In this document: positions 13,282 to 27,534 of the stretch, in pieces
How the letters are laid out: every line of letters begins with the position of its first letter
How positions within the stretch are numbered: position 1 is the first letter of the stretch
From: an uncultured Oscillospiraceae bacterium
Lineage (GTDB): Bacteria; Bacillota; Clostridia; Oscillospirales; Oscillospiraceae
DNA length: 53,009 nucleotides
Direction of reading: 5' to 3'
Assembly (NCBI GenBank): GCA_947623745.1
Contig: CANQHN010000020.1
Location: forward strand, 1 to 53,009
Program-made: the position numbers and the translations under genes
The notes under the pieces: generated by a model
What the model was told of the DNA's origin: nothing
The model's database searches: none
What the model saw: only the letters and a program-made list of their open reading frames with translations

Positions 13282-16200
13282 ATTTCAACCCACGCGCCCG
13301 TGAGGGGCGCGACGAGCCAACAGGTTTGCCGGAGCCGTCTACAATTTTATTTCAACCCACGCGCCCCGCAAGGGGCGCGACCGCCTACTTCGACGAGAAG
13401 ACGACGTGAAGACGCCCATTTCAACCCACGCGCCCCGCGAGGGGCGCGACGCCAGAAGTGCGCGGCGATGAACGCGAGCATCGGATTTCAACCCACGCGC
13501 CCCGTGAGGGGCGCGACTTGGCTCGATACCCTGGCCGAGCTCATAGAGAGCAAGGCAAAGACGGTTGAGGACGCCGCCGCAATCATCCGGGCAAAGGTCG
13601 AACAGCTCAAGACCGGCCCCGGAAGGTAAAAAAATAGGCCCCCCGGCCAGCCACAGCGCAGGGGACCGATAACCAACAGCAAATGGAGGCGGCAAGGCCT
13701 GCCACTTACCGCCTCCATCATAGCACACCCGCCCCAGGAAATCAAGATAAAACCCGGCGTCCTGGCTAAAGGGTGGAAAGGAACAAGGTTTTTCAATCAA
13801 CGCGCCCCGTGAGGGGCGCGACACCAGCCGCTCTGGTTCGCCGGATTGTCCGGACTATTTCAACCCACGCGCCCCGTAAGGGGCGCGACTGTTCGCGGAA
13901 GTGACCGACGCGCAGAAAAGCAATTTCAACCCACGCGCCCCGTGAGGGGCGCGACTGCAACGTGTCCAGCTCCGGCTGGATGGCCTCCTGATTTCAACCC
14001 ACGCGCCCCGTGAGGGGCGCGACCGACAGAACTTGATTTGAAAGTGCTGCGTATGCTATTTCAACCCACGCGCCCCGTGAGGGGCGCGACACGGCGGGGC
14101 CGTCATGCGCCGCAGGAGGCACAAATTTCAACCCACGCGCCCCGCGAGGGGCGCGACCGCGTGTAGGGCCGCGGAGCGCCAGGCCGGGCAATTTCAACCC
14201 ACGCGCCCCGCGAGGGGCGCGACCGGAAACCACCAGCACCACGTCCTTATCCCCGAATTTCAACCCACGCGCCCCGCGAGGGGCGCGACCTTCGGCTACA
14301 TCGAGTACACCGACCCCCTGAAATTTCAACCCACGCGCCCCGCGAGGGGCGCGACGGAACTGCGACCGGCGGGAGGCGGCCCTATTCAAATTTCAACCCA
14401 CGCGCCCCGCGAGGGGCGCGACTGGATGCCTCTGCCTCTCGGAACACCCACCAGACATTTCAACCCACGCGCCCCGCGAGGGGCGCGACAAATGCGACAA
14501 AATCCAAAGGCATAGCAGTTGGGATTTCAACCCACGCGCCCCGCGAGGGGCGCGACGAGCGTCAACGCCTTCCGGCAGCTTCTCTCGCCGATTTCAACCC
14601 ACGCGCCCCGCGAGGGGCGCGACGCAACAGCCCGTAATGGGTCCGCAGATGCCCGTATTTCAACCCACGCGCCCCGCGAGGGGCGCGACCGACCCGCCTG
14701 AGACCGATGTTGCGGGCCTGCTATTTCAACCCACGCGCCCCGCGAGGGGCGCGACCCGTATCCACCATAACTGGTTTTCTTCCCCTTGAGATTTCAACCC
14801 ACGCGCCCCGCGAGGGGCGCGACTTCTGATGCTGTCAACGGTGGATTCTCTGCCCTATTTCAACCCACGCGCCCCGCGAGGGGCGCGACGCTGACAAATG
14901 CTATATGGGGATTTGTACACTGATTTCAACCCACGCGCCCCGCGAGGGGCGCGACGAGCTCATGGCGACCGGCAAAGTGACCATCAAGGAATTTCAACCC
15001 ACGCGCCCCGCGAGGGGCGCGACAGGCCCCGAAGGCCCTCCCGGCCCCGCTGGTTCTGATTTCAACCCACGCGCCCCGCGAGGGGCGCGACGCGAACCTG
15101 TATATTATCCGCGAAAAACTATTTGAATTTCAACCCACGCGCCCCGCGAGGGGCGCGACGTCAATAACTTTGTCTATTACGTGGCCACGTTTTAATTTCA
15201 ACCCACGCGCCCCGCGAGGGGCGCGACCGTTGTGCTCAAAGATGTTCTCCAGGACTTTCAATTTCAACCCACGCGCCCCGCGAGGGGCGCGACGGGGAGA
15301 TAACTTCGCAAAGTGTTTCAAGGGCAAATTTCAACCCACGCGCCCCGCGAGGGGCGCGACCTCCATGATGTAGTCAGTGATTTTTTCGCTGTACTGATTT
15401 CAACCCACGCGCCCCGCGAGGGGCGCGACGGCGACCCGCCTGAGACCGATGTTGCGGGCCTGCTATTTCAACCCACGCGCCCCGCGAGGGGCGCGACGGG
15501 TGAACGATGGATAAGGAGCAGACAGCAATCATTTCAACCCACGCGCCCCGCGAGGGGCGCGACTTCAGACCGGCACCCGCGACCTGATTGACAACCAATT
15601 TCAACCCACGCGCCCCGCGAGGGGCGCGACCCGCCTCCAATCTGAAAAGTCAAAAGGCCACATTGATTTCAACCCACGCGCCCCGCGAGGGGCGCGACCA
15701 TGTACCGAAAATACGCTCTGCATCCTCCCACATTTCAACCCACGCGCCCCGCGAGGGGCGCGACCGTTTGGCCTTATGATAGACAATCGACTTGTCGATT
15801 TCAACCCACGCGCCCCGCGAGGGGCGCGACGTACTGCCCGGAGTGCAGGCGGGAGCGGAAACTTATTTCAACCCACGCGCCCCGCGAGGGGCGCGACGTC
15901 ACCGGCAAGGGCAGCTTCACCATCGTGGAGATTTCAACCCACGCGCCCCGCGAGGGGCGCGACACGCACCCCAGACCGCCAACGCCCAGGTCGCCGGATT
16001 TCAACCCACGCGCCCCGCGAGGGGCGCGACGCATAAGCTACGAGGCCACCGCCCGCGATATGAGCATTTCAACCCACGCGCCCCGCGAGGGGCGCGACGG
16101 GAATACACCTACCAGCCCCCGGAGGCGGAGGATATTTCAACCCACGCGCCCCGCGAGGGGCGCGACCCCGGTCCAGAGCAACACCCTGACTTACAACGGT

Positions 16201-19200
16201 ATTTCAACCCACGCGCCCCGCGAGGGGCGCGACAAGGCGTTTTCCGGCGGAAAAAACACGGACTTTGCATTTCAACCCACGCGCCCCGCGAGGGGCGCGA
16301 CTGGCCAGGGAGCGGACCAAGACCTTCCGCAACCGATTTCAACCCACGCGCCCCGCGAGGGGCGCGACAACGTGATGATTACAGACACTTCTTGCGAGCC
16401 TATTTCAACCCACGCGCCCCGCGAGGGGCGCGACCAGGTCCATGATCTCCACGATCTTGATCTTCTTATTTCAACCCACGCGCCCCGCGAGGGGCGCGAC
16501 CGCCGTGGCCGCCGGCGATGCCTCCGCCTTCGGATTTCAACCCACGCGCCCCGCGAGGGGCGCGACGATCTGCACCCCGCCGGCGCCTCCGGGGCCTTTC
16601 AATTTCAACCCACGCGCCCCGCGAGGGGCGCGACAGCGCCTTTGAGGAGGGCGAGGTTGGTATCACGGTATTTCAACCCACGCGCCCCGCGAGGGGCGCG
16701 ACAGGAGGACAAGAAAATGGCTTACACCAGCAGACAATTTCAACCCACGCGCCCCGCGAGGGGCGCGACGCCGCGAAGACGCCAAAATATACCGTAACGC
16801 TTATTTCAACCCACGCGCCCCGCGAGGGGCGCGACCTCTGCCCCGCTGTCCCAGCTGTCGTAGTACATGATTTCAACCCACGCGCCCCGCGAGGGGCGCG
16901 ACGCGGTGAACCCACGCGCGTATGATTCGGTTATGAGATTTCAACCCACGCGCCCCGCGAGGGGCGCGACGGTCTCTTTCGCTGGGGTTCTTCCCGTCCT
17001 GGTTATTTCAACCCACGCGCCCCGCGAGGGGCGCGACGTAGTACAGCTCCACTTTCAGGCCCTCGGTCTGATTTCAACCCACGCGCCCCGCGAGGGGCGC
17101 GACGCGGGCCCCGCCGCCGGACATGATGTAGTAGCAATTTCAACCCACGCGCCCCGCGAGGGGCGCGACGTGGACGCCCGCACCTTCACCCTCCGGCGGC
17201 TGAAATTTCAACCCACGCGCCCCGCGAGGGGCGCGACCCGGCGGCTGGCAGAGCGTATTTTCCGCAAAGCTATTTCAACCCACGCGCCCCGCGAGGGGCG
17301 CGACTCGCTTCCATAGCCTGGTCATCCAGCTTCTGGAATTTCAACCCACGCGCCCCGCGAGGGGCGCGACAGCCGATAATGCGGTAATACTGACCCGTTT
17401 GCAGATTTCAACCCACGCGCCCCGCGAGGGGCGCGACCGTTGTGCTCCCCGGTGACGATGGCCTTATGGATATTTCAACCCACGCGCCCCGCGAGGGGCG
17501 CGACAATGCTGTTTCTCAGGTTGCCTGTGTCAGGTATTTATTTCAACCCACGCGCCCCGCGAGGGGCGCGACCGATAAAAACATCCATATCACATTGCAC
17601 GTATTATTTCAACCCACGCGCCCCGCAAGGGGCGCGACCGGAAGCAGCATTACAACTGTTGCTCCCACCGCAATTTCAACCCACGCGCCCCGCGAGGGGC
17701 GCGACTGGATGCCTCTGCCTCGCGGAACACCCACCACAGATTTCAACCCACGCGCCCCGCGAGGGGCGCGACAGGGCGGGTGCTCCCACCGAAATACCTT
17801 TATTTTATTTCAACCCACGCGCCCCGCGAGGGGCGCGACACCTTCCGCGTCCCTGTGGACACCCACAACATTATTTCAACCCACGCGCCCCGCGAGGGGC
17901 GCGACGGGCAAAGACACAGCGCGAGGGGGTGAGAAAGTTATTTCAACCCACGCGCCCCGCGAGGGGCGCGACGGACTACATCACTGAGCGCATCATCAAC
18001 ATTTCAATTTCAACCCACGCGCCCCGCGAGGGGCGCGACGCCCTGATTTTACCACAGGAGCGGACAGGGAACAAATTTCAACCCACGCGCCCCGCGAGGG
18101 GCGCGACATGCCATGAGCCAGGAATCGCCCTATCTATCGCAATTTCAACCCACGCGCCCCGCGAGGGGCGCGACAAAATCCTTTTCTTCAAACATTTGCT
18201 GTAAGATATTTCAACCCACGCGCCCCGCGAGGGGCGCGACCCGTGTGCGCTCTGAACCGTTCTTCTTGCTTATCATTTCAACCCACGCGCCCCGCGAGGG
18301 GCGCGACGGATGAGCCGCCGAGGGAGGTTTGAGATGGAAGATTTCAACCCACGCGCCCCGCGAGGGGCGCGACCCGACCTGGGAGAAACACCAAAGGATA
18401 CGCAATAAATTTCAACCCACGCGCCCCGCGAGGGGCGCGACCTCGGCGCTGGAATTTGTTCCGCTGCTGGACGAAATTTCAACCCACGCGCCCCGCGAGG
18501 GGCGCGACGCCCCGGCGACTGCATTTGCGTGGAGGAGGCTTAATTTCAACCCACGCGCCCCGCGAGGGGCGCGACACCCTGGCCCACAAAGAGGGAGATA
18601 AGTGGGTCCTATTTCAACCCACGCGCCCCGCGAGGGGCGCGACCTATCCGCACTGCGTCCAGTATTTGACGCAATTATTTCAACCCACGCGCCCCGCGAG
18701 GGGCGCGACTATCTGATGAATTATCCCGCTCACGAGCGCCCTTATTTCAACCCACGCGCCCCGCGAGGGGCGCGACGGCATCCGGGCGGCATCTATTCCG
18801 GCGTTACACTGATTTCAACCCACGCGCCCCGCGAGGGGCGCGACAACAGGCCGCGAAGGAGACGCACGGGGCCAAAGAATTTCAACCCACGCGCCCCGCG
18901 AGGGGCGCGACCACCTTCCGCGTCCCTGTGGACACCCACAACATTATTTCAACCCACGCGCCCCGCGAGGGGCGCGACTGAGGCCAGGAACTACCCCAAA
19001 GAAGATGAGTGATTTCAACCCACGCGCCCCGCGAGGGGCGCGACACACCACGCCAACCGGGTACTCTGTCAGTTATAAATTTCAACCCACGCGCCCCGCG
19101 AGGGGCGCGACACGGCGGTGCCGTCATGCGGCGCAGGAGACACAAATTTCAACCCACGCGCCCCGCGAGGGGCGCGACCGGCAAAGACTTTAGAGGGAGA

Positions 19201-19578
19201 GTGGATGCCCAATTTCAACCCACGCGCCCCGCGAGGGGCGCGACAATTTTACAAGTCTGTTGCGAGCAAAGGAAAGAGATTTCAACCCACGCGCCCCGCG
19301 AGGGGCGCGACTGCCGCCTGGACAAGATATCTTCGGGCAAAACATATTTCAACCCACGCGCCCCGCGAGGGGCGCGACTTCCGCCAAATTCATCTTACAG
19401 CAAATGTTTGAAATTTCAACCCACGCGCCCCGCGAGGGGCGCGACACAGCCCAAGGAACATCCCGACAGAGCTTGATTTATTTCAACCCACGCGCCCCGC
19501 GAGGGGCGCGACGCAACCTGGCTAAACGGCGGGGCCTGGGACGATATTTCAACCCACGCGCCCCGCGAGGGGCGCGAC
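13282..19578 (-). CRISPR. Type I-C CRISPR array, 91 repeats
   Basis: I count 91 repeats of 33 nt from 13282 to 19578 with spacers of mostly 33-35 nt (mean period about 67). On the transcribed minus strand the repeat is GTC, a 7-bp stem GCGCCCC/GGGGCGC with loop TCGC, then GTGGGTTGAAAT: the type I-C pattern. The leader and cas2 are at the high-coordinate end, so the newest spacers are near 19545 and the oldest near 13282. Repeats are uniform near the leader. Variants cluster at the old end: GTGAG at 13282, 13485, 13790, 13923, 13991 and 14058; GCAAG at 13349 and, further in, at 17606; GTAAG at 13857. The first repeat is one base short, and the one at 13790 has three further changes. Frames that stay open through the array are artefacts of the periodic repeat. 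Confidence 0.99.
13518..13789. other. 272-nt interruption in the CRISPR array
   Basis: The interval between the repeats at 13485 and 13790 is 272 nt instead of about 34. Its first 112 nt read, in frame on the plus strand, as the end of a helical protein (LDTLAELIESKAKTVEDAAA..., stop TAA at 13627). Then comes non-coding DNA with a 10-bp palindrome stem ATGGAGGCGG/CCGCCTCCAT (13683-13718). It looks like captured or recombined foreign DNA, or the remains of several spacers whose repeats were lost. Confidence 0.6.
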
Positions 19579-19763: not shown

Positions 19764-20054
19764 TCAAACCATCAGCACGCCCTCCGGCTCGTAGGTTTCC
19801 TTTGCGCCGAAGTGCTCGATCTTGCCCTGATATTTGTTTCCCAGCTGATAGAACCGCAGGCTGTCCTTCTCCGGGTCGATGATCCCCAGCAGCTTGGCCT
19901 GGAGCAGCTTGTACTGCGCCTGGTCCACCAGGCACTCAAATACTGAGTTCTGCACCCGCTGGCCGTGGTTGACACACTGCTTTGCCACCCGCCGCAGACG
20001 CTTCCGCCCGGCGGCGTCCTCTGTATTCACGTCATAGGTGATGAGTACCAGCAT
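19764..20054 (-). CDS. cas2: CRISPR adaptation endonuclease-fold protein Cas2
   Basis: Cas2, 96 residues, bridges two Cas1 dimers in the integration complex that inserts new spacers at the leader. The ferredoxin-like fold start MLVLITYDVNTED carries the conserved Asp at position 8, and RRVAKQCVNHGQRVQNSVFEC is the type I-C family block. The ATG at 20054 lies 9 nt after the cas1 stop. Last gene of the cas operon, directly before the leader. Confidence 0.97.
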   Translation of the reverse strand: MLVLITYDVNTEDAAGRKRLRRVAKQCVNHGQRVQNSVFECLVDQAQYKLLQAKLLGIIDPEKDSLRFYQLGNKYQGKIEHFGAKETYEPEGVLMV

Positions 20055-20063
20055 CGAACCGCC

Positions 20064-21095
20064 TCACTTCCACAGAAACGGCGGGTAGCCGTCCATGTCG
20101 CCCCGGAGGTACCGGGCCAGCAGCAGGGCCTGGATGCAGGGCACCAGCCCCCAGGCCAGTTTTTCTTTCAGGTACGGGTGGGTGATGGGCTCTGCCAGCC
20201 GCTTCTGCCACGCGGAGAGGAAAACCTTCCGCCCCTCGTCGGTGAGCCACACCGCCCCGCCGAGCTGGCGGTCGAAGTGCTCCGGCCGGATCGCCCGGTT
20301 GTTGATGAGGGTCAGCACGAAGCGGTCGGCGAACAGGGGCCGCAGCTCCTCCATCAGATCCAGGGCCAGGGAGGCGCGGCCGGGCCGGTCCCGGTGGAGG
20401 AACCCCACATAGGCGTCCAGCCCCACGCTCTCCAGCGCCCCGGCGCAGGAATTGGCCAGCAGGGTGTATGCGAAGGACAGCAGGGCGTTCACCGGGTCCA
20501 GGGGCGGCCGGCGGGAGCGGCCAGTGAAGGCGAAGGTCTCCCTCTGGTTCAAAATGAGCCCGTCAAAGGCATTGAAATAGACCGCCGCGGTCTGGCCCTC
20601 CAGCCCCCGGAGGGAGTCCAGATCGGTCTCCTCCAGGAAGGCGGGCAGGCTGTCCGCCAGCAGGGAGGAGGCCCGACCCAGCGCCTCGCCGTCCACCCGC
20701 ATGGCGTGGTCCCGGTGGGTGCGTTCAATGCTCCAGCGGCTGTTGTAGACCTTGCCGAAGAGGAAGCACCGGGCGATGCGGCAGCTCTGGACCTCGTCGT
20801 CCGCCGCCCGGTACTGGGTCCGGCGGAGCAGGACATTGCCCGGATTCTCACCGCAGACCCGGGCCAAAAACCGCCCCCGAGGGGTCAGAAAGCACAGGTT
20901 CACGCCCTCCCGGGCGCACTTGCCCATGAGGGCGGGGCTGGCCCCCTTGTAGGAGAAGCACAGGATGCTCTCCAGGGTGTGGAGGGGGAACTGGCCCCGC
21001 TTTTCCTCTCCGGAGAGCACCACTACCGTCTCGCCCTCCAGAGCCAGGTAGCTGTCCTCGCTGAGGACGAACAGGGTATTCAGAAATTTCCTCAC
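20064..21095 (-). CDS. cas1: CRISPR integrase Cas1
   Basis: Cas1, 343 residues, joins prespacer DNA ends into the array. The three metal-binding positions are recognisable: Glu in LRGLEGQTAAVYF, His in VGFLHRDRPGR and Asp in LALDLMEELRP. GTG start at 21095, overlapping the cas4 stop (GTGA) with GGAGGATGAGTT just upstream. Complete and expected to be active, consistent with the long array with clean leader-end repeats. Confidence 0.97.
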   Translation of the reverse strand: MRKFLNTLFVLSEDSYLALEGETVVVLSGEEKRGQFPLHTLESILCFSYKGASPALMGKCAREGVNLCFLTPRGRFLARVCGENPGNVLLRRTQYRAADDEVQSCRIARCFLFGKVYNSRWSIERTHRDHAMRVDGEALGRASSLLADSLPAFLEETDLDSLRGLEGQTAAVYFNAFDGLILNQRETFAFTGRSRRPPLDPVNALLSFAYTLLANSCAGALESVGLDAYVGFLHRDRPGRASLALDLMEELRPLFADRFVLTLINNRAIRPEHFDRQLGGAVWLTDEGRKVFLSAWQKRLAEPITHPYLKEKLAWGLVPCIQALLLARYLRGDMDGYPPFLWK

Positions 21096-21766
21096 AACTC
21101 ATCCTCCTTCCCGGGCAGGTGGGCGCGGAGGTAGGCGGCGGGGGACTGGTTTTTCGCCAGCCGGGGCAGGCACAGTTCCTTCAGCGAGCAGGCGGCACAG
21201 CCCTTGCCGGGCCTGGCCTTGGGGGTGTGGCCCCGGGCGTAGAGGGTGCGCATCTCCGCCAGCATGGCCTCCACCCGTTCCCGCAGGGCGGCGTCTAGCG
21301 CCACCCTGGTACGCCGCCGGGGCTCGCCGTAGAACAAACTGCCCTCCGGGATGGAACAGAGCAGCATCTCCTCCAGGCACATGGCCTGGGCACAGAGCTG
21401 GAGCTCGTCGGCGTCGTTGGCTTTGGGCCTGCCCCGCTTGTACTCCACGGGGTAGGGGAGCCACTTCCCCTCCCGGTCGGCCAGGGCCGCCCCGGCGGGG
21501 TCCCGGTGAAACTCCACCACGTCGCACACCCCCTGGACCTGGAGACGGTGGGAGACCACCCGAAGGCCGCGGACGATGAGGGTATCGCCGCGGCTCTCGG
21601 TCTGGTTTTCATCGTGGGCGCGCCGGTGGAGCAGGTCCCCCTCCACGGTGCGCAGGTTCTCCGCCCACTGCTGCTCGATGTGGATCATGGCCCACTGGCG
21701 GCGGCAGAAGGCGAAGTGCTGGAGGCCGGACAGGGCGAGGTACTCGTCCTCCGGCAGAGCGGTCAC
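21092..21766 (-). CDS. cas4: CRISPR adaptation nuclease Cas4
   Basis: Cas4, 224 residues, an iron-sulfur PD-(D/E)xK nuclease that trims prespacers and ensures they come from PAM-bearing sites. Cysteines are seen at FAFCRRQW near the start and in the C-terminal cluster GCAACSLKELC. The nuclease core shows GVCDVVEF and YPVEYKRG. GTG start overlapping the cas7 stop (GTGA). Its presence means spacers should share a fixed PAM and orientation, which the paired duplicate spacers in the array support. Confidence 0.96.
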   Translation of the reverse strand: MTALPEDEYLALSGLQHFAFCRRQWAMIHIEQQWAENLRTVEGDLLHRRAHDENQTESRGDTLIVRGLRVVSHRLQVQGVCDVVEFHRDPAGAALADREGKWLPYPVEYKRGRPKANDADELQLCAQAMCLEEMLLCSIPEGSLFYGEPRRRTRVALDAALRERVEAMLAEMRTLYARGHTPKARPGKGCAACSLKELCLPRLAKNQSPAAYLRAHLPGKEDEL

Positions 21767-22683
21767 CCCATACGGGTGCAGGTGACGCCGGCGGGCAGGG
21801 CCGCCTCGTCCACGGTGACGGTGTAGTCGCTGTAGGCCCGGGGGCTGATGACGTCCGCCTTCCGGGTGACGGAGACGGTGTCGAACAGCTTCCAGGCGGG
21901 GGCGTAGCCCAGCTCGCAGTCATGCTTGAAGATAATGAGCTCCCGGACGGCCATCTTGCCCCGGGCGGCGGAGCGGTCGAGCTCAAACATGTTCAGGATG
22001 GCCTGCCACAGCAGTTTCAGGTCGTCCTCGCTAAACCCGGTGACCTTTTTGGCCAGATTGGCGGAGACGTAGCCCTCGCAGCGGTAGAGGGCGTAGGGGA
22101 CGATGTACTTCCGGCCCATCTCGGTGCCCTTCTTCTCCGCGTCGGCCTCGGTGGTGATGGCCACCCGGGTGATGGTGACCTCCTGGGGCACGATGGGGTC
22201 GATGCTCCGGGCAAAGCCCAGCTGCACCGGGCCCCGGATCTGGCCGCAGTTCAGGTTGCCCTTGACCATGGTGGTCATCACTGCGCCAAAGGTGCGGATA
22301 TCGAAGAAGTTTTCGCACATGAACTCCTTTACCTGGTGGTCCACGTCCACCCCCTCGGCCTCCCGCTTTTTGATGGCCTTTTTGAGGTCGTCCGGCTTCA
22401 TAGCCGCGGCGCCGTCGATCCCCGCGTGGTGGAAACCGGCATTGTCACTGGTGTTCAGGGGTACGCCGTCCTTGATATAGATGCCGAAACCCGTCTCGCC
22501 CTCCTTGGCGGTCTCTACGTAATTCCTGATTTTCCGTTTCAGGCACACGTCGGTGACCAGGCCGTAGCCGGTCTCCGGGTCCAGCCGGGGCATATTGCCC
22601 GCGTCGGGGTCGCCGTTGGGATTGCCGTTCTCCACGTCGAACAGGATGACGAACTCGTAGCGGTTCTTGATGGGGTCAGACAT
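21763..22683 (-). CDS. cas7: Type I-C Cascade backbone subunit Cas7
   Basis: Cas7 (Csd2 family), 306 residues. About seven copies coat the spacer part of the crRNA in the I-C effector. The signature start FVILFDVENGNPNGDPDAGNMPR is present, as are the family blocks NFFDIRTFGAVM and GQIRGPVQLGFARSIDPI. The start is the ATG at 22683 (MSDPIKNR), 9 nt after GGAGG and 2 nt after the cas8c stop. Full length. Confidence 0.97.
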   Translation of the reverse strand: MSDPIKNRYEFVILFDVENGNPNGDPDAGNMPRLDPETGYGLVTDVCLKRKIRNYVETAKEGETGFGIYIKDGVPLNTSDNAGFHHAGIDGAAAMKPDDLKKAIKKREAEGVDVDHQVKEFMCENFFDIRTFGAVMTTMVKGNLNCGQIRGPVQLGFARSIDPIVPQEVTITRVAITTEADAEKKGTEMGRKYIVPYALYRCEGYVSANLAKKVTGFSEDDLKLLWQAILNMFELDRSAARGKMAVRELIIFKHDCELGYAPAWKLFDTVSVTRKADVISPRAYSDYTVTVDEAALPAGVTCTRMG

Positions 22684-22684
22684 A

Positions 22685-23071
22685 TCAGTTTTCCTCCTTC
22701 TTTTCATAACGCTTTTGGGTTTGGTGGTAATACCCTAAGAAAAATGCGACCTGCTCCTCATTGTTAAGACGCTTTGGAAACGGAAATGTGATTTTGGAGA
22801 ACAGCTCAGCCAGCTGCTTGGAGAATGAGAGATACTGTGCTGGCCGTTGCTTTTCCAATTTATCCATGTGGCTATTTTTGAGCCGCTCCAAGGTGGGGTA
22901 TACTTGTTCAGGCGTTGTTGAGGCAGCGTTGAAAAAGCGGCTCTTAATCGTTGCGTTTGGCCTTGCACCTGGATTGTCAATTCTGGTATATTGCAGCTGG
23001 ATGTCCTCGAGGACAGAGAAAATACGGCCCCAGACGTAGGGGAAATAATCGGATTCTACGTTTAAAGACAC
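22685..23071 (-). CDS. cas11: Cas11c small subunit, translated from an internal start within cas8c
   Basis: In type I-C systems the small subunit of Cascade is made from an internal start inside cas8c. Here a perfect AAGGAGGT at 23086-23079, inside the cas8c coding sequence, is followed after 7 nt by an in-frame GTG at 23071 (codon 472 of cas8c). That gives 128 residues (SLNVESDYFPYVW...), matching the size known for Cas11c, and its C-terminus is the end of Cas8c. Such a ribosome site inside a coding sequence is unlikely by chance. The helical content and position fit the family. Confidence 0.8.
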   Translation of the reverse strand: MSLNVESDYFPYVWGRIFSVLEDIQLQYTRIDNPGARPNATIKSRFFNAASTTPEQVYPTLERLKNSHMDKLEKQRPAQYLSFSKQLAELFSKITFPFPKRLNNEEQVAFFLGYYHQTQKRYEKKEEN

Positions 23072-24484
23072 ACTAGCGACCTCCTTGCATCTGAAATTTT
23101 TACTGTTCTTTTGGATATAAGCTTTTAGGATAGCTGCCTTTGCGCTGGTGACATCTTGCTCTCTGCGGATGCGGGCCAGAACTTTAGATAACCAGCCGAC
23201 AGGATATGGACCGTCCGTCAAAATGCTGTAGAGCAGATCAGCAGATAGTTTTTTTAGCTCAGCATCGAGCTTCCCAGCGCTCGGACGATCCTCAGACGCC
23301 TGAGTTGCCCGCTGTGTTTCAAACAGGAGTCGCCAGACAGATCTTGGCGCTGTTTCATACGTTGGCCGGACAATTTCAAGACGCTCATAATGCCTTTGAA
23401 TATTTCTTAGGAACTGACCAAAACTGTTCCGGAGGAAGAACCGCACACTGAGGCGGGCGGCGTTAGGGGCCAGTCCAAGCACATAGAAGTTGTTGTAGGG
23501 GTCAAGCCTGACCCCGTTTATATCCTTTTCTTTACCGTTAGCCAACGCCTCTACAACGCCTTGCAAATCTGTATCGGTGACGATCTCCGTGTTACCAAAT
23601 GCAGCATAGGAGAACACGTCTTGACACAGTGGCTCCGCGTCCTCCGCCCAGTAGACCACGGCGGTGTCGCCGATGTACTGGAGGTGTGCCCGGTCGGCGA
23701 TCAGCCGGTTGAGCACCGCGCCATACCGGAAGGCGGCGTCCTCAGAGACGGGAGAGTTGAGCCCCTGGCCGGTGTCGTCGGCCTGTTCGTGGCCGTAGGA
23801 TTCAAAGGCCGGGGCGTTGAAGGACACCAGGGAGGCCCCGCTGGACTGGGCGTCTTTGATTCCTTTGATGGCGGGGTGGAGCCGGGCGATGGGGGCCGGC
23901 TGGCCGGTCACCAGACACCGGCCGGATACCGCCCCGGCGGACTTGGCGGCGCGATAGCCGTTCCACGCCGCCCGAACGGCGGGGTCGTCCTGGGCATACG
24001 GGCCGTTCACCGAGAAGATCAGGTTGGCGCCCTTCAAAATTTCCTCCAGGTAGGGGAGGAGGACCGGGTGCTCCGCCGCCTGCTCCGGCTGCCAGGTGTC
24101 GAAGAATGCACACACCGCCCGGGCGGCAGGGGAGTCCACTGAATCCAGAATTTTGTGGTGCAGCTCTTTGGCCGCTTCAAAACACTGGCGGGAGCGCTCG
24201 GGTTTGCCCTTGTTGTCGATCCCCAGGAAATAGGAGCTGTTTTCGCACAGGAAATTGGAGGAAACGCCGGAGGTTTTCTTGACCTGCTCCGGCACCGGTA
24301 AGAACTGAGGGACCTCCTTCTTGCCCCCCTCCGGCGTGATTTTCAGGGGGATGACCCCGCGGAGGTTCCCCTGCTCGTCGAGGTCCAGGGCGAAGGACAC
24401 CTTGGCCATGCTCCAGCCGGGGGGCGTGATATCCCCCCGCCGGGCCAGGGCGTCGTAGTAGTCGCAAAGCGCCCGCAGGATCAT
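22685..24484 (-). CDS. cas8c: Type I-C Cascade large subunit Cas8c
   Basis: Cas8c (Csd1 family), 599 residues, recognises the PAM and recruits Cas3. The start is the ATG at 24484 (MILRALCDYYDALARRGD, the typical family opening), overlapping the cas5c stop as ATGA. Family blocks include GWSMAKVSFALDLDEQGN, FLCENSSYFLG and CLVTGQPAPIARLHPAIKG. The last 128 residues are also made separately as Cas11c. The 3' third (from about 23600 down) is visibly less GC-rich than the 5' part, suggesting a recombination junction inside the gene. Confidence 0.96.
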   Translation of the reverse strand: MILRALCDYYDALARRGDITPPGWSMAKVSFALDLDEQGNLRGVIPLKITPEGGKKEVPQFLPVPEQVKKTSGVSSNFLCENSSYFLGIDNKGKPERSRQCFEAAKELHHKILDSVDSPAARAVCAFFDTWQPEQAAEHPVLLPYLEEILKGANLIFSVNGPYAQDDPAVRAAWNGYRAAKSAGAVSGRCLVTGQPAPIARLHPAIKGIKDAQSSGASLVSFNAPAFESYGHEQADDTGQGLNSPVSEDAAFRYGAVLNRLIADRAHLQYIGDTAVVYWAEDAEPLCQDVFSYAAFGNTEIVTDTDLQGVVEALANGKEKDINGVRLDPYNNFYVLGLAPNAARLSVRFFLRNSFGQFLRNIQRHYERLEIVRPTYETAPRSVWRLLFETQRATQASEDRPSAGKLDAELKKLSADLLYSILTDGPYPVGWLSKVLARIRREQDVTSAKAAILKAYIQKNSKNFRCKEVASVSLNVESDYFPYVWGRIFSVLEDIQLQYTRIDNPGARPNATIKSRFFNAASTTPEQVYPTLERLKNSHMDKLEKQRPAQYLSFSKQLAELFSKITFPFPKRLNNEEQVAFFLGYYHQTQKRYEKKEEN

Positions 24485-25134
24485 CGCAGCACCTCCTTTC
24501 CGGCGACCTCCAGCACGCCGTTTTTCAGTTCTGCCATAAAGAACATGGGCTGGATGTTCTCGGGATCGGAGTAGTCCATGTCGTAGAGCATCAGCCCCAG
24601 GGAGCGGGTCTCCGGGATGGTCGGCACCGGCCCGCCGGGCCAGGCCCGGAAGTTGGCGGGGAACTCCCGGCAGCCAAAGCAGGGCTGGTGGTAGCACTGT
24701 CCCTTGGCCAGCCGCCGCCGGGCGATGTCGATGAACTTGCCCTCGTTGTCCGACGGCGCGGCCTTTTCCGTGAGGGTAAAATGGGCGTCGATCACATAGT
24801 GCACGTCGGTCAGCACCATGGAGGCCCGTTGCTGGATGCTATCGCCGGTGTAGATGGCCAGGGGCTTGTCCCCGCCGGTCATCACCGAGCGCACGTTGGA
24901 GGCCAAAATTTTGTCCTTGACCTCGTTGCGCCGGATGTTGGTAAAGGTGATGGGGTTCATCACGTGGATGCGGTCGATGTGCCACCGTAGGCCGGGGTGC
25001 CAGTAGATCGCCTCGATCAGCCCCCGGGCGGCGCTGGGTGTCATCACGTCGTAGCTGACGCGCTCCACCTTCAGCTCCGGACGGGTAAAGAGTGCGTAGT
25101 CCCCCCATACCTCCACCTGGATTCCTTGGCTCAA
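24481..25134 (-). CDS. cas5c: Type I-C pre-crRNA endonuclease and Cascade subunit Cas5c
   Basis: Cas5c (Cas5d), 217 residues. In type I-C it replaces Cas6: it cuts the repeat at the base of its hairpin, leaving an 11-nt 5' tag, and stays bound to it. RAMP-type start SQGIQVEVWGDYALFTRPE and block YDVMTPSAARGLIEAIYWHP. I place the start at the TTG at 25134, because GAGGTGAGC lies 8 nt before it and the family homology begins there. In-frame codons upstream overlap the promoter. The 16-bp-spaced promoter and the guide-matching site at 25153-25189 lie directly upstream. Confidence 0.94.
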   Translation of the reverse strand: MSQGIQVEVWGDYALFTRPELKVERVSYDVMTPSAARGLIEAIYWHPGLRWHIDRIHVMNPITFTNIRRNEVKDKILASNVRSVMTGGDKPLAIYTGDSIQQRASMVLTDVHYVIDAHFTLTEKAAPSDNEGKFIDIARRRLAKGQCYHQPCFGCREFPANFRAWPGGPVPTIPETRSLGLMLYDMDYSDPENIQPMFFMAELKNGVLEVAGKEVLR

Positions 25135-25152: not shown

Positions 25153-25189
25153 TTCTATAAAGTGGTTGATAAGTACAATTAACAGTATA
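25153..25189 (+). promoter_or_regulatory. Candidate self-target site (operator for Cascade) in the cas5c promoter
   Basis: TTC at 25153-25155 (the canonical type I-C PAM) is followed at 25156-25170 by TATAAAGTGGTTGAT. The first 15 nt of the spacer at 25300 are TATAATGTGGTTGAT: 14 identities, with the single mismatch at position 6, a base that is flipped out of pairing in Cascade. Similarity ends after 15 nt. A full-length 34-nt footprint (25156-25189) would cover the cas5c transcription start and -10 box. Matching strand, PAM side and seed are all as type I interference requires. Confidence 0.85.
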
Positions 25190-25211
25190 CACAAAATTTA
25201 GAAGATGTCAA
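25184..25211 (-). promoter_or_regulatory. Promoter of the cas5c-cas2 operon
   Basis: On the minus strand TTGACA (25211-25206), 16-nt spacer, TATACT (25189-25184). Predicted start near 25177, giving a leader of about 43 nt before the TTG start codon. Confidence 0.8.
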
Positions 25212-25225
25212 GCTAGAAATTTTGA

Positions 25226-25255
25226 TTGCATATTGGGGTATCAGTAAGGTATACT
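25226..25255 (+). promoter_or_regulatory. Promoter of the solitary CRISPR-like RNA
   Basis: TTGCAT (25226-25231), 18-nt spacer, TATACT (25250-25255). The predicted start at about 25262-25264 coincides with the first base of the repeat-like hairpin. Confidence 0.65.
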
Positions 25256-25263
25256 TGATGTAC

Positions 25264-25325
25264 GTCTCATAAACAATGTGTTTATGAGTGGGTTGAAATT
25301 ATAATGTGGTTGATTACATGTGCTG
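25264..25325 (+). ncRNA. Solitary repeat plus spacer: cas-regulating crRNA-like RNA
   Basis: 25264-25299 has the layout of the array repeat: GTC, stem TCATAAACA/TGTTTATGA around ATG, then GTGGGTTGAAAT. The stem sequence is unrelated to the array repeat, but the fold is kept, and the first 3 and last 12 bases are identical. Cas5c cleavage at the stem base would leave the same 11-nt tag (TGGGTTGAAAT) as normal crRNAs. The following 26 nt (25300-25325) act as spacer, with a seed match to the cas5c promoter; a second hairpin starting GTCGC follows and may serve as the degenerate second repeat. The limited 15-nt match would allow Cascade binding without Cas3 cutting. Similar guides (CreR type) are known in other CRISPR subtypes. 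The function here is inferred from sequence. Confidence 0.85.
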
Positions 25326-25327
25326 GT

Positions 25328-25359
25328 CGCAGGGCAGATGCTAGGGCATCTGCCCTGCG
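25328..25359. other. 13-bp hairpin between cas3 and the solitary guide
   Basis: CGCAGGGCAGATG (25328-25340) pairs perfectly with CATCTGCCCTGCG (25347-25359) around CTAGGG. It sits 6 nt after the cas3 stop and right after the guide's spacer, where the two transcripts converge. It may end both, or serve as the 3' hairpin of the guide RNA. No T run on either side. Confidence 0.7.
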
Positions 25360-25365
25360 GCTGTC

Positions 25366-27534
25366 TTACACAAAAATCCCCACGCCGCCATCCGTCAGCA
25401 AGGTAAGTCCCGTATTTTCATCATAGAGCGCTGTATCGGTCAAAACAGCCAGCCCATCCTCCAGGATATCCAGCGCGCCCCGGGCGTTGAGGGCATTGAA
25501 GTGGTTTTCGTACACGTTCACGGAGAACTGCCCGGCCTTCCGCAGCAGGGACCGGCTGCGCTGGCCGCTCTGCAGGCGGGCGGCCAGCGCTTTGGCCTCC
25601 TCTGTGCGGGGGATGAGCACCGCCCGGGTGTTCTGGTCGATGAGGTGGAACTCCCTGGCCACCTCGGCGAAGGGGAAGGAGGGCCGGCTGGCGTCCTGCA
25701 CCCCGTTCTCGAACAGGGAGACGATGTGTTTGCTGTCGGTTCCCTCCCCAGTGAATCGGCGCAGGGCGGTGAAATAGCGCTCGACGGTCTCCGGGGCGTC
25801 CAGAGCGGGGCAATCCCGGGCGACGGCGCGCATGACCTCTATAGGCCGCTTCAAAGAATCGGGCAGGGTGGAGGTGTAGGCGCTGTCGGGCTGGAAGATA
25901 TACACGCGGCTGTCATCCGCCGGGCGTTTCCCCTCTCGGTTGCACCGGCCGGCGGCCTGGATGATGGAGTCCAGCCCCGCCTCGGCCCGGTAGACAGCGG
26001 GGAAGTCCACGTCCACCCCGGCCTCGATGAGGCTGGTGGACATCACCCGGCAGGGGAGCGGGTGTTCGGGGTTCAGTCGGCGGCGAATCTCTGCCAGCAC
26101 CTCCCGCCGGTGCTCCGGCGTCATGAGAGTGGACAGGTGGAAGCTGCCCTCCCTATCCAGCAGGCCGTAGACCGCCTGGGCCTGCTTGCGGGTGGACACG
26201 ATGCACAGGACCTGCTCGTGGGCGTTGAGACACTGGGCCAGATCCTCGTCAGACAGCTGGCCCAGGTGCTCGTAGCGCACCCGCTGGAAAACCTGGGTGG
26301 GAATTTCAGGTGCGATCTCCCTGGGCGTCAGCTCCGGCGAGATGGATTGGAACAGCGGCCCCAAGGCGGGCTGGGTGGCGGTACACAGGACGCAGGACGC
26401 GCCGTAGTTCACCGTGAGCTCGGCGATGGCCCGGACGCAGGGCAGCAGATAGGGCAGGGGGAGGGTCTGGGCCTCGTCGAAGATGATGACGCTGTCCGCC
26501 AGGTTGTGGAGCTTCCGGCACCGGGAGGGCCGGTTGGCGAACAGCGACTCGAAGAACTGCACCGCCGTGGTCACCACCACCGGCAGGTCCCAGTTCTCAG
26601 CGGCCAGCTTTTTGCGCTCCTTCTCCGGGTCGGGCGGGCCGCTCTCGTCGTCGCCGAAGTTCACGTTGGAGTGGTGCTCCAGCACGGCCTCCTCCCCCAG
26701 GACCTTGCGGAAGGTGTCCGCCGTCTGCTCGATGATGCTGGTGTAGGGGATGACGTAAATGATCCGCTTCTTCCCAAACGCCTTCGCGTGGCGCAGGGCG
26801 AAGGCCAGGGAGGATACGGTCTTGCCGCCGCCGGTGGGCACCGTCAGGGTGAACAGGCCGGGGGCCTGGGCTTGTCCCGCCTCCAGGCAGGCCCGGAGGA
26901 TGCCGCAGCGGGTGCGGTTCAGGTCCGATCGGGCGTCCCACCAGGGGGAGACGTAGTTTTCCAGCCGGGCGAGCAGCTGCTCCATGGTGAGGTCGCTGCC
27001 CCGGGGTGGGGGGTTCCCCCGCATGAAGGCCTCGGTGTCCAGATAATCCGCGTCCACCAGGCAGGAGAACAGCATCCTGATCCAGAACGCCATGGTGAAG
27101 CCGCCCCGGCCCAAAACTTTAGGCGGCCGGAACGGGACGCGCTCCAGCTGGATCTCGCTGGAGAAGTCCCCGCAGGGCTCCACCGGCCGTTTGAGCCGCC
27201 CGCTGAGAGTGGGGTCGGAGGGGGCGTCCCCGCGGCCTCCGCCGTCGGGCAGGCCGCCGTGGTGGCCCGCCACGCAGTAGGCGGCGGGCCAGCCGAAATA
27301 CCTGGCGATCTCCTGGGCCCCGGCGGTGGAGTGGTCCACGGAGATGTTTTCTCCCCGGATGCGCCGCTGGAACCGGGCGGAGTATTTCCCAATGTCGTGG
27401 GCCAGTCCCAGCTGACGGGCCAGCTCCCCGGCGCCGAAGGGCCGGGCAAAGGCCTCGGCCAGCTGGGCGGCGCCGCGTCCGTGGCCGGCCAGGGGCTGGA
27501 CTCTTCCGTCCTGGGTGAGGTGCGCGATATACAT
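25366..27534 (-). CDS. cas3: CRISPR helicase-nuclease Cas3
   Basis: Cas3, 722 residues, is recruited to Cascade-bound targets and unwinds and degrades DNA. The N-terminal HD nuclease shows H46-D47 (LAHDIGKY), the HH pair at 91-92 and D161. The SF2 helicase has Walker A VPTGGGKT (K238), DEAQ at 353-356, SLIEAGVDVDFP and QAAGRCNREGK. Full family length. The ATG at 27534 follows GGGAG. It is transcribed separately from the cas5c operon, which is needed if Cascade represses only the latter. Confidence 0.97.
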   Translation of the reverse strand: MYIAHLTQDGRVQPLAGHGRGAAQLAEAFARPFGAGELARQLGLAHDIGKYSARFQRRIRGENISVDHSTAGAQEIARYFGWPAAYCVAGHHGGLPDGGGRGDAPSDPTLSGRLKRPVEPCGDFSSEIQLERVPFRPPKVLGRGGFTMAFWIRMLFSCLVDADYLDTEAFMRGNPPPRGSDLTMEQLLARLENYVSPWWDARSDLNRTRCGILRACLEAGQAQAPGLFTLTVPTGGGKTVSSLAFALRHAKAFGKKRIIYVIPYTSIIEQTADTFRKVLGEEAVLEHHSNVNFGDDESGPPDPEKERKKLAAENWDLPVVVTTAVQFFESLFANRPSRCRKLHNLADSVIIFDEAQTLPLPYLLPCVRAIAELTVNYGASCVLCTATQPALGPLFQSISPELTPREIAPEIPTQVFQRVRYEHLGQLSDEDLAQCLNAHEQVLCIVSTRKQAQAVYGLLDREGSFHLSTLMTPEHRREVLAEIRRRLNPEHPLPCRVMSTSLIEAGVDVDFPAVYRAEAGLDSIIQAAGRCNREGKRPADDSRVYIFQPDSAYTSTLPDSLKRPIEVMRAVARDCPALDAPETVERYFTALRRFTGEGTDSKHIVSLFENGVQDASRPSFPFAEVAREFHLIDQNTRAVLIPRTEEAKALAARLQSGQRSRSLLRKAGQFSVNVYENHFNALNARGALDILEDGLAVLTDTALYDENTGLTLLTDGGVGIFV

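What the first reader, a model, noticed from the sequence alone, without database searches (positions are those of the whole stretch)
25153..25359. Solitary CRISPR-like guide that appears to direct Cascade to the promoter of its own operon
In the cas3-cas5c gap a single repeat-like hairpin (25264-25299) keeps the exact ends of the array repeat (GTC and GTGGGTTGAAAT) but has a wholly different, perfectly paired stem. A plus-strand promoter (TTGCAT-N18-TATACT) would start at its first base. Its spacer begins TATAATGTGGTTGAT. The cas5c promoter contains TTC followed by TATAAAGTGGTTGAT: 14 of 15 seed bases, mismatch at position 6 only, correct type I-C PAM, correct strand. A Cascade footprint there covers the cas5c -10 box and start site. 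The match ends after 15 nt, enough for binding but not for Cas3 attack. This predicts a feedback loop in which surplus Cascade shuts off cas5c-cas8c-cas7-cas4-cas1-cas2, and in which anti-CRISPR proteins or crRNA shortage would release it. CreR-type guides are known in other subtypes; a I-C case with a rewired repeat stem is worth attention.
Basis: partly seen in the sequence, partly recalled or inferred. Interest (0 to 1): 0.97.

Follow-up and report, generated by a model that had tools for sequence, protein, structure and literature searches.

The report
CRISPR guide that targets its own promoter
Beside its CRISPR immune genes this bacterium carries one stray guide-like element, 14 of whose first 15 letters match a site at the predicted start-up region of those same genes, and the immune complex would likely use it to turn down its own production.

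Summary
The operon is type I-C. Antisense in the cas3-cas5c gap lies one array-like repeat with a rewired stem; its spacer matches, after a TTC PAM, a site beside a strong predicted cas5c promoter. Of 105 distinct cas3-cas5c gaps examined (window included), 59 are long; 51 of these hold such a guide, and 48 of the 51 guides match their own gap at 11 or more of 15 scored positions (shuffled spacers: 3.5%). The match has one form: positions 1-5, 7-11 and 13-17 pair, 6 and 12 are free, identity is at background from 18. Within clusters of related guides, 133 of 153 spacer differences at paired positions recur in the target, against 1 of 87 at positions 6, 12 and 18. In a published I-E study a target mismatched only at 19-32 bound Cascade robustly without interference or priming. 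The likely function is CreR-type self-repression of the cas operon. CreR is reported for I-B, I-E and V-A; an I-C form with one repeat, a 3' hairpin and a 17-position match appears to be a new variant. Against: 3 of 51 guides lack a target, 8 of 59 long gaps lack a guide, and transcription and repression are untested.

The parts
25264..25299 (+). solitary repeat-like unit: GTC, rewired 9-10 bp stem, array-identical 3' end; predicted 5' tag TGGGTTGAAAT at 25289-25299
   Evidence: folds (z -6.2 for 25262-25372, downstream hairpin included)
25300..25325 (+). guide (spacer) segment; positions 1-15 match the target except position 6
25324..25363 (+). 18-bp hairpin closing the element; contains GTCGC (25326-25330), the 5' end of the array repeat, so it may be a remade second repeat; may set the RNA 3' end (no T-run in the window)
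   Evidence: a hairpin was found after the guide in 44 of 48 matching loci, T-rich tail in 19 (no shuffle control)
25226..25255 (+). predicted promoter of the guide, TTGCAT-18-TATACT (weak -35)
   Evidence: below the cut-off
25153..25155 (+). PAM TTC of the target
25156..25172 (+). target of the guide (17 positions); the full footprint would run to about 25190
25184..25211 (-). predicted promoter of cas5c and the downstream cas genes, TTGACA-16-TATACT
25366..27534 (-). cas3
   Evidence: TIGR01587 and TIGR01596 above cut-off
24481..25134 (-). cas5c (TTG start likely at 25134)
   Evidence: TIGR01876, I-C Cas5c, above cut-off
22688..24484 (-). cas8c
   Evidence: TIGR01863 above cut-off
21763..22689 (-). 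cas7 (Csd2)
   Evidence: TIGR02589 above cut-off
21092..21766 (-). cas4
   Evidence: TIGR00372 above cut-off
20064..21095 (-). cas1 (I-C)
   Evidence: TIGR03640 above cut-off
19764..20054 (-). cas2
   Evidence: TIGR01573 above cut-off
13282..19578 (-). CRISPR array, 90 exact repeat 3' ends, interrupted near 13520-13820

Best explanation
The element is likely a CreR-like regulatory guide of a type I-C system: its spacer matches a site at the predicted promoter of its own cas5c operon, and its RNA is predicted to load into Cascade and park it there, so that surplus Cascade would likely shut down cas5c-cas8c-cas7-cas4-cas1-cas2. Shown by sequence: one array-like repeat with a different stem, antisense between cas3 and cas5c; a spacer matching a TTC-flanked site beside the predicted promoter; the same arrangement with other letters in 48 of 51 guides; matching in three blocks of five with positions 6 and 12 free and background identity from 18. 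Inferred: transcription from about 25262-25264, cutting by Cas5c at the stem base, loading into Cascade, repression. Inferred from the published I-E study: a match ending at 17 gives binding but neither cutting nor priming. Inferred: a stem weaker than that of the array repeat makes the guide a poor competitor, so abundant array crRNAs or an anti-CRISPR would lift the repression. In the window cas3 lies upstream of the targeted promoter and is probably outside the loop.
For: Best target in the held assembly. 48 of 51 guides score at least 11 of 15 against their own gap with a TTN PAM (37 TTC, 9 TTT, 2 TTA): 21 at 15, 17 at 14, 7 at 13, 3 at 11; of 5,100 shuffled spacers 5 reached 13 and none 14. 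Spacers swapped between loci (TTC PAM only, look-alike spacers left out) reached at most 11; 88 array spacers of the window reached at most 10 against the window gap. Identity per position in 48 loci: 1-5, 47-48; 6, 12; 7-11, 44-47; 12, 6; 13-17, 36-45; 18, 10; 19-30, mean 11 or 23%. Covariation 133 of 153 at paired positions against 1 of 87 at 6, 12 and 18, over non-independent pairs of loci. 41 of 44 targets with a predicted cas5c promoter lie on it or within 12 nt (random placement 58%). Watson-Crick stem of at least 4 bp ending at the handle in 30 of 51 guides, shuffles 5.1%. In the 25 matching loci with an array in hand the guide's repeat folds more weakly than the array repeat in 25 of 25. 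Of 50 testable loci with short cas3-cas5c gaps, 4 have guide and target upstream of cas3 instead (no null computed). I-C Cascade aimed at a -10 box represses (PMC10865793, passages). A target mismatched at 19-32 bound I-E Cascade robustly without interference or priming (PMC5904413, section 14 read).
Against: No transcript, processing or repression data. 3 of 51 guides have no target (L074, L076, L109); three more (L031, L126, L129) score only 11, which 3.5% of shuffles reach. 8 of 59 long gaps have no guide. The guide's 11-nt tag equals that of the array in 13 of 27 loci with an array in hand. In 18 of 48 loci the expected footprint does not touch the best predicted cas5c promoter, and in 4 none was predicted. 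11 of 48 PAMs are not TTC. 17 of 51 guides have no Watson-Crick stem of 3 bp or more at the handle. In the window the guide's -35 is weak and no terminator-like site was found. Wider in the phylum guides are rare: 1 of 29 loci.
Confidence: 0.88

Rival explanations
1. Orphan repeat left over from a decayed array, with a spacer that resembles the cas5c promoter region by chance or by old self-acquisition.
For: Three guides (L074, L076, L109) have no target and look decayed; L028 and L112 carry several repeats in the gap.
Against: 48 of 51 guides match their own gap; changes covary; identity is at background from position 18, whereas an acquired self-spacer would match over its full length.
Confidence: 0.03
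2. CreTA- or CrePA-like addiction module: the guide represses a toxin gene in the gap, and cas5c is repressed only because it shares the promoter.
For: Some relatives have long leaders before cas5c with a small open frame; CreA and CreR are described as working alike (PMC12737573, passages).
Against: In the window about 43 nt separate the predicted start (25177) from the cas5c start codon, and no small frame with a ribosome site was found in the gap. Small frames of relatives look unlike between groups (my reading).
Confidence: 0.05
3. The guide acts as insulator or positive regulator: Cascade at the site blocks read-through from cas3, or occludes the divergent guide promoter, rather than repressing cas5c.
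For: 15 of 44 expected footprints lie wholly upstream of the cas5c -35, towards the divergent guide promoter.
Against: 25 of 44 footprints overlap the span from -35 to start; Cascade over a promoter represses (PMC10865793, passages).
Confidence: 0.07

Closest known systems
CreR, cas-regulating RNA (I-B, I-E and V-A per one passage of the review PMC13131331; also PMC12737573 passages; the original 2023 paper is recalled only)
   Same: crRNA-like RNA, partial match to the promoter of its own cas operon, expected to work through the effector
   Different: type I-C; one repeat followed by a hairpin (two-repeat form of CreR recalled); antisense between cas3 and cas5c; 5-5-5 match ending at 17
CreA of CreTA modules (PMC9458426: abstract and passages; PMC8501985: start of abstract and one passage)
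   Same: degenerate ectopic repeats steer Cascade to a promoter by partial complementarity
   Different: target is at a cas promoter; no toxin frame found in the window gap
Standalone-repeat regulatory mini-arrays (Shmakov and colleagues 2023, recalled; not held)
   Same: standalone repeats with spacers partly matching cas promoters, mostly type I (recalled)
   Different: whether I-C cas5c loci are in that survey could not be checked
Racr, phage single repeat units (PMC11656645, passages)
   Same: solitary repeat that could load into Cascade
   Different: lies beside host cas genes with a guide-target pairing; patterns of three guide families gave no exact hit in viral contigs

Membership tests
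CreR | repeat-like element outside the array, beside the cas operon | tested here: met
   25264-25299, the one plus-strand copy of the handle in the window; 51 of 59 long gaps
CreR | spacer with partial complementarity and PAM at a promoter of its own cas genes | tested here: met
   (promoters are predicted)
CreR | match shorter than a full protospacer | tested here: met
   background identity from position 18; that such a match is not cut is taken from I-E work, not tested
CreR | two flanking repeats giving a defined small RNA (recalled) | tested here: inconclusive
   one repeat; the downstream 18-bp hairpin contains GTCGC, the start of the array repeat
CreR | RNA expressed, bound by the effector, represses cas | not testable with these tools
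   needs RNA and reporter experiments
CreR | derepression by competing crRNAs or anti-CRISPRs | not testable with these tools
   only a weaker fold than the array repeat was seen (25 of 25)
CreTA / CrePA | toxin gene under the targeted promoter | tested here: not met
   no small frame with a ribosome site in the window gap; an RNA toxin cannot be excluded by that test, but about 43 nt of leader leave little room
Type I-C CRISPR-Cas | cas3, cas5c, cas8c, cas7, cas4, cas1, cas2 with I-C models | tested here: met

The most novel reading that the evidence does not exclude
These I-C loci carry an evolved 'hold but do not cut' code: guides under selection to pair three Cascade segments (17 positions, 6 and 12 left free) and no further, giving full Cascade occupancy of the cas operon's promoter without destroying or priming against the host's own genome. 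Where the guide sits in the cas3-cas5c gap, the loop governs Cascade and the adaptation genes but leaves cas3 alone; it senses free Cascade, and its 17-position signature can be read from sequence to find regulatory guides elsewhere.
Probability: 0.6. Interest if true: 0.82.

Novelty: new variant of a known kind. Interest (0 to 1): 0.7.

Why it matters
[quoted passage not shown] The comparison gives 48 natural guide-target pairs in 31 spacer clusters that keep three five-base blocks and then stop, so the match length at which Cascade binds without cutting becomes a measurable evolutionary rule. It suggests a sequence-only way to find such circuits, and named strains that carry them (for example Pseudoflavonifractor gallinarum DSM 107456, L102/L043, and Desulfosporosinus, L112 and L120) for direct tests of whether I-C expression is released by anti-CRISPRs or by crRNA demand.

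Tried and rejected
Chance match: rejected by shuffles, swaps and array-spacer controls. TTC as the only PAM: too strict; 14 of 51 guides missed with TTC alone, 11 of these match with TTT or TTA. Active avoidance of pairing at positions 6, 12 and 18: not supported; 12, 6 and 10 of 48 against 23% background, lowest one-sided P 0.05. Identical tag in guide and array: not general, 13 of 27; a first script for this failed through a pattern error. Rfam: 3 matches, all far below gathering score. Wider spread: of 29 phylum-wide loci 2 had no cas3 in reach, 24 short gaps, 3 long gaps, and 1 a guide with a match. Guide upstream of cas3 when the gap is short: 4 of 50 testable, 16 not testable (handle up to 3 mismatches, no null; L168 the weakest at 13 of 15); a narrower first pass gave 3 of 30. 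Viral mimics: three patterns, no hit. Small leader frames as toxins: not pursued. Footprints touching the best cas5c promoter: 26 of 48, 25 of 44; ties between candidate promoters were broken differently. Literature: searches showed no listing or passage of an I-C CreR; the two central 2023 papers are not in the library (asked for one of them; one search searched both titles), so this is no proof of absence.

Rows dropped before counts: L001, L002, L022, L023 (copies of the window), L019 and L021 (no Cas5c hit), L078, L098, L111 (no cas3 in reach), and copies of identical gaps, leaving 105; two poor Cas5 relatives (L018, L020) stayed in. Loci examined: genus, 19 of 19 places; family, 30 of 58 places from 400 sampled genomes; genome contigs, 80 of 94; phylum, 30 of 74 places.

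Full report
OBSERVATION. The window holds a type I-C system on the minus strand: cas3, cas5c, cas8c, cas7, cas4, cas1c and cas2 all pass NCBIfam cut-offs, followed by an array with 90 exact repeat 3' ends. In the 231-bp gap between cas3 and cas5c the plus strand carries one unit that begins GTC and ends GTGGGTTGAAAT like the array repeat but has an AT-rich 9-10 bp stem in place of the GC-rich one. Its next 15 bases match 14 of 15 bases at 25156-25170 after a TTC PAM. In the held 3.05-Mb assembly nothing else matches as well; the reversed control gave 3 two-mismatch matches, that none.

PROMOTERS. The strongest promoter-like site on the cas strand is TTGACA-16-TATACT at 25211-25184, 11 of 12 bases (2 sites found, 0.7 expected). 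With a start near 25177, a Cascade footprint from 25153 to about 25190 would cover the start and the -10 box. The guide's own promoter, TTGCAT-18-TATACT, would start the RNA at about the first base of the repeat, but its -35 is weak. After the spacer comes an 18-bp hairpin whose 5' arm contains GTCGC, the start of the array repeat, which suggests a remade second repeat (inference). It has no T-run, and the terminator scan found none.

RELATIVES. I collected cas5c neighbours from the genus (17 of 64 genomes with a match), the family (58 of 400, 30 places fetched) and named genome contigs (80 of 94). They give 105 distinct cas3-cas5c gaps, the window included. 46 are under 120 nt; in these no plus-strand handle within 2 mismatches was found, and two give minus-strand strings (L044, L066). 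59 are long; 51 hold a plus-strand handle within 2 mismatches, in 42 of 51 at 78-87 nt from the end of the cas3 match. Titles show MAGs of Oscillospiraceae type, Faecalibacterium (L091, L126), Pseudoflavonifractor (L102, L119), Desulfosporosinus (L112, L120) and one Atopobiaceae MAG (L129); L126 and L129 are among the three weak matches.

THE MATCH. For each guide I scored positions 1-17 without 6 and 12 (15 positions) against the TTN-flanked sites of its own gap on both strands, own spacer masked. 48 of 51 score 11 or more: 15 in 21 loci, 14 in 17, 13 in 7, 11 in 3. Of 5,100 shuffled spacers 5 reach 13, none 14, and 176 reach 11. L074, L076 and L109 have no match. By spacer similarity the 48 form 31 clusters. 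Identity per position shows three blocks of five, gaps at 6 and 12, and background (23%) from 18 on. The score did not count positions 6, 12 and 18-30, so their values were not selected. Cascade flips out every sixth base (PMC5965380, passages; PMC5904413, passages).

COVARIATION. Within the six clusters of related guides, counted over pairs of loci (not independent), spacers differ at paired positions 153 times, and in 133 cases the target carries the same difference. At positions 6, 12 and 18 it is 1 of 87. L029 and L030 show it plainly: the 22 nt before the handle are identical, and the guide bases at positions 1 and 5 changed together with target bases 1 and 5.

PLACE OF THE TARGET. 25 of 44 targets overlap the span from -35 to start of the best predicted cas5c promoter and 41 of 44 lie within 12 nt, against 45% and 58% for random placement; 15 lie wholly upstream of the -35 and 4 downstream of the start. 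Four further loci of the 48 had no predicted promoter. Of 50 testable short-gap loci, 4 have a guide and target upstream of cas3, so the guide may follow the operon's promoter.

MECHANISM. In the published I-E study, a target with mismatches only at 19-32 bound Cascade robustly without interference and without primed adaptation (PMC5904413, section 14). A match ending at 17 is what one expects of a guide selected to hold Cascade on the host's own promoter without harm (inference, carried over from I-E). I-C Cascade from Neisseria lactamica, aimed at a -10 box, represses, and TTC and TTT are its PAMs (PMC10865793, passages); these are the two commonest PAMs here. The guide's repeat folds more weakly than the array repeat in 25 of 25 comparable loci, which would make it a weak competitor (inference). 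The abstract of PMC9458426 links repeat degeneration in CreTA to specificity and to resistance to recombination; the same may apply here.

KNOWN OR NEW. [quoted passage not shown] I saw no I-C case in the searches, but the two central papers are not held. I therefore file this as a CreR-like system in I-C, a new variant by its single repeat, its antisense place between cas3 and cas5c, and its 17-position match. RNA expression, processing and repression, which define CreR in experiments, are untested.

Noticed in passing
L028 and L112, cas3-cas5c gap: The guide is part of a short array (two and three handles); the guide locus may take up further spacers.
   Followed up: partly
L009 (and a similar piece in L014): An insertion that looks like a small mobile element lies between the two arms of the guide hairpin in L009, yet guide and target still match.
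   Followed up: no
cas5c leader in long-gap relatives (for example L029, L030, L063, L065): A recurring small open frame (MVEAxRxGGRxNRPPP) or palindrome precedes cas5c; not found in the window.
   Followed up: partly
window 13520-13820: The array is interrupted by about 300 bp with a degenerate repeat copy.
   Followed up: no
L008, L072, L051, L067: The expected footprint reaches the best predicted guide promoter, so the guide might also limit itself.
   Followed up: partly
L074, L076, L109: A guide-like unit is kept but no target is found: possible decayed circuits.
   Followed up: partly
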